Shown: positions 39,849 through 47,062 of the stretch, one piece after another
Layout: the number at the start of each line of letters is the position of its first letter
How positions within the stretch are numbered: the first letter of the stretch is position 1
Origin: Desulfobacterales bacterium
Lineage (GTDB): Bacteria; Desulfobacterota; Desulfobacteria; Desulfobacterales; Desulfobacteraceae
Assembly: GCA_023143455.1 (NCBI GenBank)
Contig: JAGLHT010000012.1
Span: 1-62,248 of the forward strand
Length of the DNA stretch: 62,248 nt
Direction: 5' to 3'
Notes under the pieces: generated by a model
The model's input: the letters and a program-made list of their open reading frames with translations, nothing else
What the model was told of the DNA's origin: nothing
Database searches by the model: none
Position numbers and translations under genes: made by a program

Positions 39849-40475
39849 TACAACTATATTTATTGGAAAATGTCAAGGTCTTATTTTAAAAAAGCACAAA
39901 GGCTTTTCTCTTGTTTTACAATCAGTTACCCAAACAATAGAACTTTTATTCATAAATATGAACCCTGTTTTTCTAAAATTTATCCCATGAAGGTATATTC
40001 ATTTTTCAGAACCCCAGGTAAACCTACAGCTTGGGCAACGATTACATCTTTACCATTGTATTGTATGTTATTGATGGCAAGAAAGGTACTGATTATTATA
40101 CAGTTTTGTTAAAACTGTAATAGGGAAATTATTATTCAAAAATGATTTGTAATTTAAGATAAACCAATCAGTCCGACTTAAGACATAATTGCAACCACTG
40201 CCATATAAATCTGATTTATATTCAAACCCCAATCATCTGAAATAGTATGCACTGGTTAGAAGGCATTAAGGCAATAGCCATTCCAGTTATTAATTTTATT
40301 AACCTCATTGAAATTGTCCTTCTTTTTTGGAAGACTCAAAGGCGTGAATTATGTATTTTTTCAACTGATTACTCAATATCTCATGGGGAATTTGTACCAA
40401 ATGTTTAATGGAACTCAATAATTCATAATTTCGGGAAATCAACTTTTCAGCAAAAAAGGGTAAAAGAATAAAAGA
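39849..40475. other. Gene-poor gap left of the DGR
   Basis: No gene is supported in these about 630 bp. On the minus strand about 40466-40305 is open and reads AEKLISRNYELLSSIKHLVQ at its start, ending at a TGA (40305-40307). It begins right behind VR1, the position held by avd behind VR2, so it may be a decayed gene, but it matches nothing I recognise. Confidence 0.35.
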
Positions 40476-42809
40476 TCAAAGTTTAATCCTGGAACAACGA
40501 AACCCGAGAGTGAAGTCCCGTAAAAACGGGCTGTCGTTGCCGCGACTGGCACAACGGCAGAGACCACTATCGTCGAAGAACGACCCGCCGCGCAATACAG
40601 GTATCTTTCTTTTCTTGTTTTGTAATTCTTTAACATATTCTTCAATAGTATCTTCTTTTAGTAATTTTAGTAACTTTTCATCAAAAATAAAATCATCACG
40701 GTTTTCACCATCGTGATAATCAGTTTGTGTCCATTCCCAAACATTACCAGCTAAATCATAAACGTTTTCAGGAGTTTTACCCTCCTTAAAAATTCCAACA
40801 GGTGAAATTCTGCCTATTTTTGATTCCTCGTAATTACATTTATTCGGATCAATATTTTTTCCCCATGGATATTCACGCTTTTTTTCTCCTGCTGCTGCTG
40901 CCTGCCATTCAAACTCAGAAGGAAGCCTGTACAAGTATCCATCTTTTTTACTTTCAGTCAGCCATCTGCAAAAAGCATCTGCCTCATACCATGAAACACC
41001 AACAACAGGAGAGTTAGGGCAGTTCCATTTTCTTTCATTCCAGTATGATGGCTCTTTATCTTTTAAATTTTTGAGAAATTTTATACCTTCTTTACTCCAA
41101 TAATCTTTATTTTTGTATCCTTTATCAGCAACAAACTTTTTAAACCATAAATTCGTTACCGGATATTTTGAAATCTCAAAAGCGGGTATTTTTTTTAGAC
41201 CTATTTTTTTAAGATCATAATCTCCTTTATTAATTCTTATAAAATCAGTATACCCTCTTTCATATCCAAGTCTGCCAAGGTTTTCTCCGACTTCATTTAA
41301 AATTTCCGGTTTTTCTTTGCCTGCACGCAGAATAGTCAGCATTCTATCCTTTGCAAGACCACAGACCTTATCTTGTCTATTATCCTTATGAATATCAAGT
41401 AATGCTTTTGAAACAACTCTCCATCTATAAAAATGATTATTGGCATCATCATTTAATACATCTCTGATAATCCCATTTGCACTCCCACTGCCTCTGATGC
41501 TCAAGAATCCAATAAAAAGTTCTACAACCTCACGATATCGTTTATCATCTATAAATGGTGAGATTATATCATATGGGGATTTTTCAGAAGTATTTAACAT
41601 ATAACTTGCTGTTAAAAATTCCTGAAATGTCAGGTGGGAAAATCGGTACTGGCCATTTTCTAAATGCATAAGACCACTGCCGGATTCAATTCTTTCAAAC
41701 CTGTCTTTTGGCAATTCATCGGTTTCTTTGAAATGTTTTTTTATTATCCTTACAGCACCCAGCTCATCTATTCCCCTGCTATTATCAACAAACATAGTAT
41801 GAGCAAGTTCCATCATAAAGGAATATACTTTAGTTTTTTCATTTTCAAATTTACTGAACAGTCTTTTTATAAAACGTTCATATAGCTCTGCTCTCTGATC
41901 AGGTAATTCTTTCAAATCATTATATAATATACACATGGCTGTCAGCATAAGAGGATTTCGTTTTAAGGCGTCTATATCTTCATTAGCTTTTATTTCACCT
42001 GTCATTTTTTTTGCAATATCTTGTCCTGTGACTGATCCTTTCTGATAAACCGCAGCAAACCACGTGTTTATAAAATTTGTAACCTGTTCATTTGTGAAAT
42101 CTTCGACTTTGGCAATTCTATCGCCAAATCTTTTGTTAGAAGCGCCTTCAATCCCATGTTGCCTTCCTGCAAGTATGACTTTAATGCTATCATGCTTGAG
42201 CCTGAAATCAGCAAATGAATTTACAATAAACTCTCTAACACCAGTTTCAACTTCATCCAACCCATCAATAAGAAAAACAGCTTTGCCCTGTTCACAAAAT
42301 TCTTGAATTACTTCCATGCTCAAGCCATTATCAACCACTTCCTGAATATGCCATTTTAAAAGATTAGAAACACCCTTTGCCATACTGATTTTTTTATATG
42401 GATACTTTTTAAAGTCCTTCATAAAAAGAATGATTGGCAGGATATTTTTTTCAAATAATTTTGTATTATTACTAATAATTGATCGCAAAAGATGCTTCAT
42501 TAATGTAGTTTTACCTGAACCGGCAGAACCCTGCACAACAAGGTATTCACCTTTTGCAGCAAGTTCTTCTATATTGATAATGTTATCTTTTCCTCGAATA
42601 TTTTTAACATCCTTGCTTTTTTCAGGATTCTCAGTAAAAAGAGGTTGATACAAATCAGGAAGGCTTATATTTACAATTTTTTCATCTCCCCTTAAAAGAT
42701 CAATATCCATATTTAATAATTCACATACTTCTTTGATAACCGCTCTCTCTTCTTGTAGATCACCGGGAGAAGCTATAAAAACATTATACTCGGCTATAAA
42801 ATTAGACAT
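40476..42809 (-). CDS. DGR target 1: DUF4062-NACHT NTPase with variable FGE/C-type-lectin domain
   Basis: A 777-aa protein. It starts with a short DUF4062-like piece (YNVFIASPGDLQEERAVIKE, about 7-26). The NACHT NTPase has Walker A GSAGSGKTTLM (about 95-105) and Walker B VFLIDGLDEVE (about 175-185), followed by a helical region. An FGE-sulfatase-like domain begins near 526 (KYPVTNLWFKKF) and ends in the variable region (residues about 737-773, within LRGGSF..GFRCS). ATG 42809 is preferred since GGAG lies upstream and DUF4062 begins there; an upstream in-frame start at 42893 would add 28 unrelated residues. It is a STAND-type sensor whose binding face is diversified by the adjacent DGR. Confidence 0.88.
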   Translation of the reverse strand: MSNFIAEYNVFIASPGDLQEERAVIKEVCELLNMDIDLLRGDEKIVNISLPDLYQPLFTENPEKSKDVKNIRGKDNIINIEELAAKGEYLVVQGSAGSGKTTLMKHLLRSIISNNTKLFEKNILPIILFMKDFKKYPYKKISMAKGVSNLLKWHIQEVVDNGLSMEVIQEFCEQGKAVFLIDGLDEVETGVREFIVNSFADFRLKHDSIKVILAGRQHGIEGASNKRFGDRIAKVEDFTNEQVTNFINTWFAAVYQKGSVTGQDIAKKMTGEIKANEDIDALKRNPLMLTAMCILYNDLKELPDQRAELYERFIKRLFSKFENEKTKVYSFMMELAHTMFVDNSRGIDELGAVRIIKKHFKETDELPKDRFERIESGSGLMHLENGQYRFSHLTFQEFLTASYMLNTSEKSPYDIISPFIDDKRYREVVELFIGFLSIRGSGSANGIIRDVLNDDANNHFYRWRVVSKALLDIHKDNRQDKVCGLAKDRMLTILRAGKEKPEILNEVGENLGRLGYERGYTDFIRINKGDYDLKKIGLKKIPAFEISKYPVTNLWFKKFVADKGYKNKDYWSKEGIKFLKNLKDKEPSYWNERKWNCPNSPVVGVSWYEADAFCRWLTESKKDGYLYRLPSEFEWQAAAAGEKKREYPWGKNIDPNKCNYEESKIGRISPVGIFKEGKTPENVYDLAGNVWEWTQTDYHDGENRDDFIFDEKLLKLLKEDTIEEYVKELQNKKRKIPVLRGGSFFDDSGLCRCASRGNDSPFLRDFTLGFRCSRIKL
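40489..40598 (-). repeat. DGR variable repeat 1 (VR1)
   Basis: 110-bp near-repeat of the template at 43026-43135, in the last 40 codons of target 1. Aligned by eye it differs from TR at 21 positions, and every difference is at an adenine of the TR coding strand (T on plus). The outer 15-20 bp at both ends are identical to TR. The encoded variable residues replace the run of Asn codons of the template. Confidence 0.95.
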
Positions 42810-42843
42810 AAAACTCTCCTGATATAAGTAAGTATGAAATAAA

Positions 42844-42886
42844 TTCTGTTTCGGGTTTTCGGTTAGCCTACTAGCCCGAAACAGAA
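42844..42886 (-). promoter_or_regulatory. Hairpin upstream of target 1, possible end of the RT-TR transcript
   Basis: Perfect 12-bp arms TTCTGTTTCGGG (42844-42855) and its complement (42875-42886), with a 19-nt loop. On the minus strand it follows the TR and is followed by AATTTATTTC, so it may act as a weak terminator or as a structural part of the TR-containing RNA. Confidence 0.5.
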
Positions 42887-43025
42887 AGAGCATAATTTGT
42901 TCTAAAGGTTAAATTATTAACCAAAAGAAGCAGGATCAGAGTCTGGATTAAAACATAGCACTCTCTTTTTCTTTTATTTGGAAAAAGACTCTGGCTAAAG
43001 ATAATTTTACTTATCTTTTTTAATA
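42887..43025 (-). ncRNA. Spacer RNA segment downstream of the DGR template
   Basis: Non-coding stretch right after TR in the direction of transcription. It holds small inverted repeats: CAGAGTCT (42937-42944) with AGACTCTG (42986-42993), and GGTTAA/TTAACC (about 42908-42922). In the Bordetella phage DGR the RNA downstream of TR is needed to prime cDNA synthesis; this segment is in the same place, so an equivalent role is inferred. Its ends are not known. Confidence 0.4.
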
Positions 43026-43135
43026 CTGGAACAACGAAACCCGATATTGTTGTTCCGTTTATTCGGGTTGTTGTTGTTGCGATTGGCACAACGGCAGTTA
43101 TCACTATTGTTGTTGAACGACCCGCCGCGCAATAC
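43026..43135 (-). repeat. DGR template repeat (TR)
   Basis: 110-bp template, 3 bp after the RT stop codon. Read on the minus strand it would encode LRGGSFNNNSDNCRCANR and so on, with 13 Asn (AAC/AAT) codons, the classic composition of a DGR template that allows adenine mutagenesis to reach many residues but no stop codons. It carries 34 coding-strand adenines. It matches VR1 and VR2 at all other positions. At base 43025 TR differs from both VRs at a non-adenine, a likely IMH* versus IMH difference that fixes the direction of information transfer. Confidence 0.95.
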
Positions 43136-46662: not shown

Positions 46663-46740
46663 ATAACTCTCCAGAAAATAAAGTTATGTGATGAGGTTTT
46701 AATCCAGAATATGGCATTCTTAAAAACCTCGTGAATTTTT

Positions 46741-46770
46741 TAAGCTAAATAGAAACCATGATTTTGTCAA
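46741..46770 (-). promoter_or_regulatory. Candidate promoter of the DGR operon
   Basis: On the minus strand, TTGACA (46770-46765) is a perfect -35 hexamer. Seventeen bases further, TAGCTT (46747-46742) is a weak -10. It lies about 80 bp before the target 2 start. A small inverted repeat (GAGGTTTT 46693-46700 with AAAACCTC 46723-46730) sits in the predicted 5' leader. Confidence 0.35.
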
Positions 46771-46808
46771 GGAGAATATTAAATGCTCTGTATTATATCA
46801 ACCTGCTT

Positions 46809-46905
46809 GATAGAGGTTTAAAGGGCTTTTTGTAGCGCATCTTTTAATTTTTTGGGGTTTAAAAAATTAAAAACCTAAGTGAAAAAAGCCCTTTAAACCT
46901 CTATC
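46809..46905. repeat. Perfect 23-bp inverted repeat with a nested stem
   Basis: Arms 46809-46831 and 46883-46905 are perfectly complementary over 23 bp (beginning GATAGAGGTTTAAAGGGC). Inside, TTTTAATTTTTT (46842-46853) pairs with AAAAAATTAAAA (46861-46872) around a 7-nt loop. The structure stands between the DGR operon and the divergent aldolase gene. It may be a bidirectional terminator, a cruciform boundary of the cassette, or a small MITE. The rest of the 46663-47062 gap has no gene. Confidence 0.7.
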
Positions 46906-47062
46906 TTGAATACAAATATCAGGCATTGGAGAATAAAATATTTTTTTGGCAAATTTTCTGTTTCTAAGGATTATTTCTTGCTTTTTCATAATTTTCATGC
47001 AAAAAATTAGAAGTTTCTAATGTTAATCTTTTTGTCCATAACTATATAGGGAGGAGACACTC

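What the first reader, a model, noticed from the sequence alone, without database searches (positions are those of the whole stretch)
40440..46910. Complete diversity-generating retroelement with adenine-only mutation pattern
RT, Avd-like protein, a 110-bp TR and two 110-bp VRs were found together. Aligning TR against both VRs by eye, all 21 (VR1) and 20 (VR2) differences fall on coding-strand adenines of TR, while every C, G and T of the coding strand is unchanged. This is the diagnostic signature of an active or recently active DGR. The TR is loaded with Asn codons (13), which lets adenine mutagenesis reach many residues without making stops.
Basis: seen in the sequence. Interest (0 to 1): 0.93.

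Follow-up and report, generated by a model that had tools for sequence, protein, structure and literature searches.

The report
Gene-mutating retroelement rewriting two receptors
A bacterial genome carries a complete mutation machine whose two target genes differ from its template only at adenines, so it has likely been re-randomising the binding ends of two predicted phage-sensing proteins; beside each target lies a repeating DNA pattern that is shared with many related machines and may help mark the spot to be rewritten.

Summary
TR 43026-43135, VR1 40489-40598 and VR2 44624-44733 align without gaps; all 21 and all 20 differences fall on the 34 template adenines. RT, Avd and TR lie between two target genes: KAP-ATPase+FGE (VR2) and NACHT+FGE (VR1). 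It is a new member of a described kind: DGRs that diversify STAND/KAP-ATPase "antigen sensors" (PMC10907252).

(1) In a same-genus genome the 7.0-kb block 40006-47040 is replaced by 2.77 kb. (2) The NACHT target lacks about 167 residues of the N-terminal DUF4062 domain that its closest relatives carry; DUF4062 is reported as a TIR-like NADase (preprint PMC13174449). (3) After both VRs, not after the TR, stands an array of about 8-nt pyrimidine-rich units. In 64 DGR loci the 70 nt 3' of the VR repeat with period 7-8 (z 15.0 and 18.5); TR flanks do not. A pre-specified held-out set gave z 4.0 and 6.3, but its lag-15 prediction failed and a group of flanks lacks the array. My searches found no description of it. 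Its function is untested.

The parts
44611..46662 (-). target gene 2: KAP P-loop ATPase + FGE-sulfatase (C-type-lectin-like) domain, 683 aa, ends in VR2
   Evidence: Pfam KAP_NTPase 155.7 bits, FGE-sulfatase 167.1 bits; model matches Treponema denticola variable protein 1 (2y3c, E 4.3e-9, rank 47) among FGE/EgtB folds
44624..44733 (-). VR2
   Evidence: 110 nt, 20 differences from TR, all at TR adenines
44585..44623 (-). 3' flank of VR2: phased pyrimidine-rich array (units about 7, 8, 8 nt)
   Evidence: 38 of 39 nt identical to the VR1 flank and unlike the TR flank; 4-mer recurrence at +7/+8, P 0.0024 against 5000 dinucleotide shuffles
44218..44577 (-). Avd
   Evidence: NF033474 113.5 bits against cut-off 80; PF22296 80 bits
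43139..44221 (-). DGR-type reverse transcriptase, 360 aa
   Evidence: PF00078 96.8 bits; best PDB sequence match 8ub7, reverse transcriptase, E 7.1e-57; YCDD and GNLTSQ
43026..43135 (-). TR (template repeat), 3 bp after the RT stop
42987..43018 (-). start of the TR-RNA spacer: 8-bp hairpin (42997-43018) and GAGTC (42987-42991)
   Evidence: DNA fold z -2.8; GAGTC within 130 nt 3' of TR in 33 of 64 loci, 3' of VR in 5 of 64
42844..42886 (-). 12-bp stem-loop followed by TTTATTT, terminator-like, between TR and target gene 1
   Evidence: DNA fold z -3.7
40476..42809 (-). target gene 1: NACHT ATPase + FGE-sulfatase domain, 777 aa, ATG at 42809 after AGGAGAG, ends in VR1
   Evidence: Pfam NACHT 39.4 bits, FGE-sulfatase 159.3 bits (run with one extra codon); model's best match NLRC4 4kxf, E 1e-11, TM 0.29 over the whole query
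42710..42809 (-). stub of the DUF4062 domain; junction of the in-frame loss at about 42710/42711
   Evidence: alignment with homologs; codons around the junction; residues 1-51 pLDDT <50
40489..40598 (-). VR1
   Evidence: 110 nt, 21 differences from TR, all at TR adenines
40450..40488 (-). 3' flank of VR1: phased pyrimidine-rich array
   Evidence: 4-mer recurrence P 0.013; a stricter chain test was not significant, P 0.22
40006..47040 (.). whole DGR block, absent from the same-genus genome at this site
   Evidence: its locus L126 matches window 36438-40005 (82.6%) and 47041-49142 (85.0%), with 2.77 kb between

Best explanation
This is a complete diversity-generating retroelement in which one template repeat, with its reverse transcriptase and Avd, sits between two target genes that differ from the template only at adenines, and it has likely rewritten, by error-prone copying and homing, the ligand-binding ends of a NACHT ATPase and a KAP ATPase that are predicted to sense phages. 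How it works, step by step. Shown: the cassette order KAP-FGE/VR2, Avd, RT, TR, NACHT-FGE/VR1; adenine-only differences in two VRs; VRs at the last codons of FGE (C-type-lectin-like) domains; a T/G switch at the TR/VR 3' border; an approximately 8-nt array after both VRs and not after the TR. Inferred from studied DGRs: the TR RNA is copied with errors opposite A; the cDNA replaces the VR up to the 3' border; the TR itself stays unchanged. Predicted: VR residues form the sensor surface, and the ATPase modules oligomerise on binding, as in bacterial NLR-like defence. In this genome the NACHT partner lacks the N-terminal effector domain of its closest relatives, so it would need a partner (perhaps the KAP protein) or another effector to act.
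For: TR/VR statistics. RT and Avd families. One RT match and two VRs in the held genome, which is 78.7% complete. The two VRs look like independent draws from the TR: 14 sites changed in both (12.4 expected), 8 with the same base (5.1 expected, P 0.083). Changes fall on codon positions 1 and 2: 21 of 21 in VR1, 19 of 20 in VR2. The same cassette order with intact DUF4062 exists in a same-family genome, L153: 16 of 16 and 21 of 21 changes at A. In 64 of 104 loci scanned, 1214 of 1231 TR/VR mismatches are at TR adenines; the scan kept only pairs with at least 85% at A, so the high share is partly by construction. Structure searches give NLRC4/NLRP3 for target 1 and a known DGR variable protein among FGE folds for target 2. 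Target 2 matches PADLOC candidate PDC-S20 (E 2.8e-31), PifA and QatA models.
Against: No strain, read or expression data, so present activity is not shown. The usual GC-rich hairpin 3' of the VR was not found at either VR. The KAP model has pTM 0.42, so its domain packing is not predicted. The phage-sensor role is by family only; FGE domains also occur in enzymes, and most PDB sequence matches of the targets are FGE-fold enzymes. The missing DUF4062 argues against target 1 acting alone as a killing effector.
Confidence: 0.87

Rival explanations
1. The element is decayed: it diversified the VRs in the past and is now inactive, as suggested by the missing effector domain and missing hairpin.
For: Target 1 lacks about 167 residues of DUF4062; no hairpin 3' of either VR. 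KAP/NACHT-FGE target pairs without a close DGR RT exist in other genomes, e.g. L141 (taken by its contig length, 5589073, to be Desulforapulum autotrophicum HRM2), where the NACHT frame is broken before the VR.
Against: RT, Avd and both target frames are open; RT motifs intact; no change at 76 non-A positions in two VRs; L153, with intact DUF4062, also lacks the hairpin.
Confidence: 0.2
2. The FGE-ended ATPases serve signalling or a chemical function unrelated to phage sensing.
For: FGE-fold matches are mostly enzymes; the same-genus genome has a Cache/HAMP gene of chemoreceptor type in the same slot.
Against: NACHT and KAP ATPase modules, NLR structural matches, PADLOC matches, DUF4062 or calcineurin-like N-termini in many listed relatives, and the published context of such DGRs (PMC10907252).
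Confidence: 0.25
3. The array after the VRs is a transcription signal (Rho-loading C/U-rich tract or terminator lead-in) or a by-product of slippage, not a homing element.
For: It starts at the stop codon and is C/T-rich, G-poor in most flanks. It persists after targets in genomes without a close DGR RT. Other ORF ends in the same loci show a small signal at lag 7 (0.288 against 0.271, z 6.4) and lag 15 (0.281 against 0.269, z 3.7), none at lag 8 (z -0.3); 400 of 828 ends used.
Against: The effect at VR ends is far larger (0.40-0.42 against 0.29-0.30). The period is kept where the sequence is G-rich or TCTG/ATTTG-type, which is not a Rho tract (by eye). It is co-conserved between the two targets of a locus while 3' identity falls to 0.22-0.31 at 100-140 nt (21 loci).
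Confidence: 0.4

Closest known systems
DGRs that diversify STAND/KAP ATPase targets (clade 5D of Dore et al. 2024, PMC10907252; abstract, section 6, section 11 part 1 of 2 and passages read)
   Same: Two targets, each with one C-terminal FGE/CLec domain and a central NACHT or KAP ATPase; one TR, one RT
   Different: Here one TR serves a mixed NACHT and KAP pair, and the NACHT target lacks the N-terminal domain of its nearest relatives. I did not place the RT in their reference tree.
Bordetella phage BPP-1 DGR (prototype)
   Same: Avd, RT, TR/VR with adenine-only change, TR/VR 3' border mismatch; RT best PDB match 8ub7 (that this entry is the BPP-1 RT is recalled)
   Different: Targets are ATPases, not a phage protein; TR lies after the RT; a phased array and no GC hairpin follow the VR
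DUF4062 TIR-like NADase defence, 'Swarozyc' (preprint PMC13174449; abstract, passages, sections 5 and 7 read)
   Same: Nearest relatives of target 1 carry DUF4062 joined to NACHT and FGE
   Different: Target 1 itself keeps only a stub. The terms 'diversity-generating' and 'FGE' do not occur in the preprint's main text.
Treponema denticola variable protein 1 (2y3c)
   Same: Known DGR variable protein with an FGE-like fold; matched by the target 2 model
   Different: 2y3c has 278 residues in the match table; here an ATPase precedes the sensor domain

Membership tests
Diversity-generating retroelement | TR and VR near-identical repeats differing at TR adenines | tested here: met
   21 of 21 and 20 of 20
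Diversity-generating retroelement | RT of the DGR type with YxDD and GxxxSQ (motif labels recalled) | tested here: met
   Y-x-D-D and GNLTSQ are invariant in the 25 aligned sequences, the window's included; best PDB match is the RT of 8ub7
Diversity-generating retroelement | accessory protein Avd or equivalent | tested here: met
   NF033474 above cut-off
Diversity-generating retroelement | VR at the end of a C-type-lectin-like target | tested here: met
   FGE-sulfatase domains in both targets; model match to 2y3c for target 2
Diversity-generating retroelement | IMH*/IMH mismatch at the 3' border | tested here: met
   CCAGT in TR, CCAGG in both VRs
Diversity-generating retroelement | GC-rich hairpin 3' of VR (usual accessory, not defining: residual activity without it is reported in PMC3240598 and PMC12875486, passages) | tested here: not met
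   none at either VR with stem 5 or more, loop 3-6, GC 60% or more; found in 26 of 64 loci by stem 6 or more
Diversity-generating retroelement | RT-dependent transfer of adenine mutations | not testable with these tools
   needs an experiment or population reads
DGR clade 5D of Dore et al. | position of the RT in their tree | not tested
   their reference sequences were not used
DGR clade 5D of Dore et al. | two targets with CLec plus STAND/KAP ATPase (described there as common, not universal) | tested here: met
Swarozyc (DUF4062 NADase defence) | a complete DUF4062 domain | tested here: not met
   Pfam DUF4062 absent at E 0.1 from target 1, present in P0241, P0242 and P0249; target 1 is not filed there

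The most novel reading that the evidence does not exclude
The approximately 8-nt phased array directly after the VR is an undescribed target mark of many DGRs, read unit by unit by the RT-Avd complex (for instance by the repeated subunits of the Avd ring) or by a host factor to choose and orient the homing site; in this element and its nearest kin it does the work that a DNA hairpin does in BPP-1.
Probability: 0.35. Interest if true: 0.82.

Novelty: new member of a known kind. Interest (0 to 1): 0.6.

Why it matters
How a DGR recognises its target is still only partly understood; the cis-elements in the papers I read are the IMH and a hairpin. A third, phased element that is visible from sequence in many loci, and is present here where the hairpin was not found, would make target choice directly testable and would help place diversification sites in engineered systems. 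The locus also links a targeted mutation machine with NLR-like ATPases whose relatives carry a TIR-like NADase domain, a plausible bacterial receptor whose sensor is randomised on purpose. The absence of that effector in this member raises the question of helper and sensor pairs.

Tried and rejected
VR1/VR2 as a plain duplicate of each other: shared changes do not clearly exceed chance (P 0.083). Remote VRs in the same (incomplete) genome: only the two found; of 8 FGE-sulfatase matches one is the TR itself, two are the targets and five lie elsewhere; CTTTTACCCTTT occurs 4 times in the genome, twice at the VRs, and the other two contigs (C26, C44) have no FGE match. Rfam: no match at gathering score in the window. 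Viral contigs: no relative found with the single RT. Hairpin at the window's VRs: none.

Results against my array reading: 26 of 64 flanks are not significant one by one; the stricter chain test passes in 54 of 96 flanks and not at the window's VR1 (P 0.22); lag 15 failed in the held-out set, and 11 of its 21 flanks begin GTCA and none of these 11 passes the chain test at 0.05; two of those 11, L175 and L206, are identical copies; 5 of 11 phage flanks are negative; two of 15 KAP/NACHT-FGE gene ends looked at by eye, G144 and G093, lack it; other ORF ends show a small lag-7 and lag-15 signal. The lag test also raised lags 2, 6, 9 and 16 in the first set (z 5.0, 4.0, 5.3, 7.4). VR 5' flanks of the two targets are also alike (0.61 falling to 0.35), as homologous domains would be.
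Full report
The window is C14:1-62248 of a 2.70-Mb, 109-contig genome estimated at 78.7% completeness. On its - strand lie, in order of transcription, target 2 (46662-44611, ending in VR2), Avd (44577-44218), RT (44221-43139), TR (43135-43026) and target 1 (42809-40476, ending in VR1). Avd passes NF033474 and the RT passes PF00078. The RT's best solved relative by sequence is 8ub7, labelled reverse transcriptase; that this is the BPP-1 complex is recalled. Target 1 is NACHT + FGE-sulfatase and target 2 is KAP ATPase + FGE-sulfatase.

TR against VR. The three 110-mers align without gaps. 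All 21 and all 20 differences are at template A, 34 of 110 positions. Changed positions are codon positions 1 and 2, except one of 20 in VR2. The two VRs look like independent draws: 14 shared changed sites against 12.4 expected, 8 identical bases against 5.1 expected, P 0.083. Thirteen of 36 codons of the TR are Asn and one codon can become a stop. Directly 3' of the repeat the TR has T and both VRs G; the same switch recurs in L153, L146 and L037, not in L147.

Context. In the one same-genus genome held (G001) the flanking genes are syntenic: its stretch matches window 36438-40005 at 82.6% and 47041-49142 at 85.0%, and 2.77 kb replaces the 7.0-kb DGR block. One of its genes there has Cache and HAMP domains. 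G001 has no RT match at E 1e-3. The DGR therefore sits in a variable slot. The closest RTs in the protein collection are 81% and 79% identical and unnamed; named ones include Scalindua (67%), Brocadiaceae (63-65%) and Desulfobacterales (64%). In a FastTree of 87 RTs the window groups with L153 and L146 (99*).

The target pair. By profiles built here, KAP-FGE and NACHT-FGE genes lie together in the window and in L037, L130, L141, L142 and L143. In L037 the KAP part is in two frames, and in L130 the NACHT match is under Pfam's cut-off (23.2 against 26.7 bits). L153 carries DUF4062-NACHT-FGE, TR, RT, Avd and an FGE end cut by the contig, in the same order as here; a KAP part of its genome lies on another contig (L152). 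In 389 genomes of the order, 14 (the window's included) have a KAP-FGE match at E 1e-80 and 38 (included) have an RT match at E 1e-35. Pairs without an RT in the stretch are L141 (taken by its contig length, 5589073, to be Desulforapulum autotrophicum HRM2), L142 and L143; their genomes G016, G242 and G160 are not among the 38. L140, L144, L145, L147, L148, L150 and L151 show KAP-FGE without NACHT-FGE in the stretch fetched; L149, L152, L154 and L155 are cut by contig ends. The mixed pair is thus recurrent but not obligatory. Dore et al. describe clade 5D DGRs with two NACHT/nSTAND1 targets and some KAP ATPases (PMC10907252: abstract, section 6, section 11 part 1 of 2, passages).

Missing DUF4062. 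Target 1 has 777 residues. Its best relatives P0241 (67%), P0242 (64%) and P0243 (52%) have 919-953 residues and list PF13271 (confirmed for P0241 and P0242). By my count of that listing, 24 of the 120 shown (of 382 found) carry PF13271 and 73 carry PF00149. The alignment shows an in-frame gap after ..CELLN, resuming at MDIDLL; against L153 it removes 167 residues. The stub is unfolded in the model: residues 1-51 have pLDDT below 50, mean pLDDT 80.1, pTM 0.73. Some relatives have no such domain at all, for example P0254 of 796 residues, so a protein without it may be viable. A 2026 preprint reports that DUF4062 is a TIR-like NADase acting in phage defence (PMC13174449: abstract, passages, sections 5 and 7). 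Its main text does not mention DGRs, and a search for papers with both terms found none. So relatives of target 1 would join an NADase, an ATPase and a purposely varied sensor, and this copy lacks the first. That the loss is real and not an assembly error cannot be checked here; the listing does not contain target 1 itself, whereas those contain target 2 and the RT.

The array 3' of the VRs. The 39 nt after VR1 and VR2 agree at 38 positions and differ from the TR flank. They form units of about 7, 8 and 8 nt (ACTTTGAT CTTTTAYT CTTTTACC CTTTTTTG, my division). I scanned 104 loci: the window, 80 from genome contigs found by RT, and 23 others from family and order, after dropping L147, which is the same contig as L074. 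Of these, 64 had a TR/VR pair with at least 6 mismatches and at least 85% of them at A, 87 pairs in all. One VR per locus, 70 nt 3' of the refined end: base identity at lags 7, 8 and 15 is 0.401, 0.417 and 0.396 against 0.294-0.295 in 200 sets of dinucleotide shuffles (z 15.0, 18.5, 13.8); lags 4, 12 and 19 are depleted (z about -8 to -9). At the same three lags TR flanks give z -0.6, 0.9 and -0.3. Pyrimidine content is 0.64 3' of VR, 0.49 3' of TR and 0.40 5' of VR. Singly, 38 of 64 VR flanks and 3 of 64 TR flanks have P at or below 0.05. By eye the period is kept where letters differ (CTTTTACC, TAGCCCTTT, TTTTCTG, ATTTG). GC hairpins of the published type follow in 26 of 64 loci (4.8% of 1000 random 120-mers), and the stretch between VR and hairpin is itself periodic (0.45, 0.47 at lags 7, 8). 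The window has no such hairpin. In 21 loci with two VRs, 3' identity between them falls from 0.81 to 0.22 over 140 nt; 5' identity runs from 0.61 to 0.35.

Tests of the array. Control ends of other ORFs in the same loci (400 of 828) give 0.288 at lag 7 (z 6.4), 0.269 at lag 8 (z -0.3) and 0.281 at lag 15 (z 3.7): small signals, none at lag 8. A held-out test was written down before fetching: of 39 loci, 22 had a pair and 21 a full flank; lags 7 and 8 were the two highest (z 4.0, 6.3), but lag 15 was not raised (z 0.3), so part of the prediction failed. Eleven of the 21 flanks begin GTCA, and none of these passes the chain test. Of 12 phage loci, 11 gave a pair; 6 of 11 flanks pass a chain test at 0.05 (lags 7 and 8 both z 3.3). 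By eye, 13 of 15 KAP/NACHT-FGE gene ends in the fetched order loci keep CTTTT(A/G)CCC-like units after the stop or VR end, G144 and G093 do not. These include genomes without a close RT (HRM2, G005, G242, G160, G125, G171, G384), which can mean recent RT loss or an RT-independent role.

Prior description. Guo et al. 2011 (PMC3240598: abstract, passages, section 10) report a hairpin just downstream of VR and call its distance flexible; the words pyrimidine, iteron and tandem do not occur in the main text. PMC12875486 and PMC7517822 (passages) do not hold 'pyrimidine'. A search for DGR with polypyrimidine found 0 papers; one search listed 18 papers on DGR with IMH or conserved motif, of which I looked into two (PMC3240598, PMC7517822); one search found 733 papers for looser words, and none of the 12 listed is on DGRs. 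Subscription papers are not held, so absence from print is not proven.

Verdict. The DGR is real and canonical, a new member of a described kind; the interest lies in the mixed NACHT/KAP receptor pair with a missing effector and above all in the phased array, whose period is shown and whose function is inferred.

Noticed in passing
46809-46905: 97-bp element with perfect 23-bp inverted ends at the right edge of the DGR block; one search lists 23 matches (E 0.01) in this genome, including itself and both strands of some copies, so it looks like a MITE-like family.
   Followed up: partly
L141 (G016), 5882-8986: DUF4062-NACHT-FGE gene in a genome without a close DGR RT; its frame changes before the VR, so the VR is read in another frame.
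   Followed up: partly
42987-42991 and 3' of TR in other loci: GAGTC within 130 nt 3' of TR in 33 of 64 loci (5 of 64 after VR), a candidate conserved piece of the TR-RNA spacer.
   Followed up: partly
window target 1, 40476-42809: Target 1 itself is missing from the protein collection's listing, although target 2 and the RT are there on 2 and 3 contigs; unexplained.
   Followed up: no
L143 (G160): Two calcineurin-like-NACHT-FGE genes, a KAP-FGE gene, a fourth FGE-ended gene and a 70-aa Avd-like piece in one 19.5-kb stretch, with no RT match there.
   Followed up: no
L146 (G240), 6513-6517: One of the two NACHT targets is split by a stop between ATPase and FGE parts.
   Followed up: no
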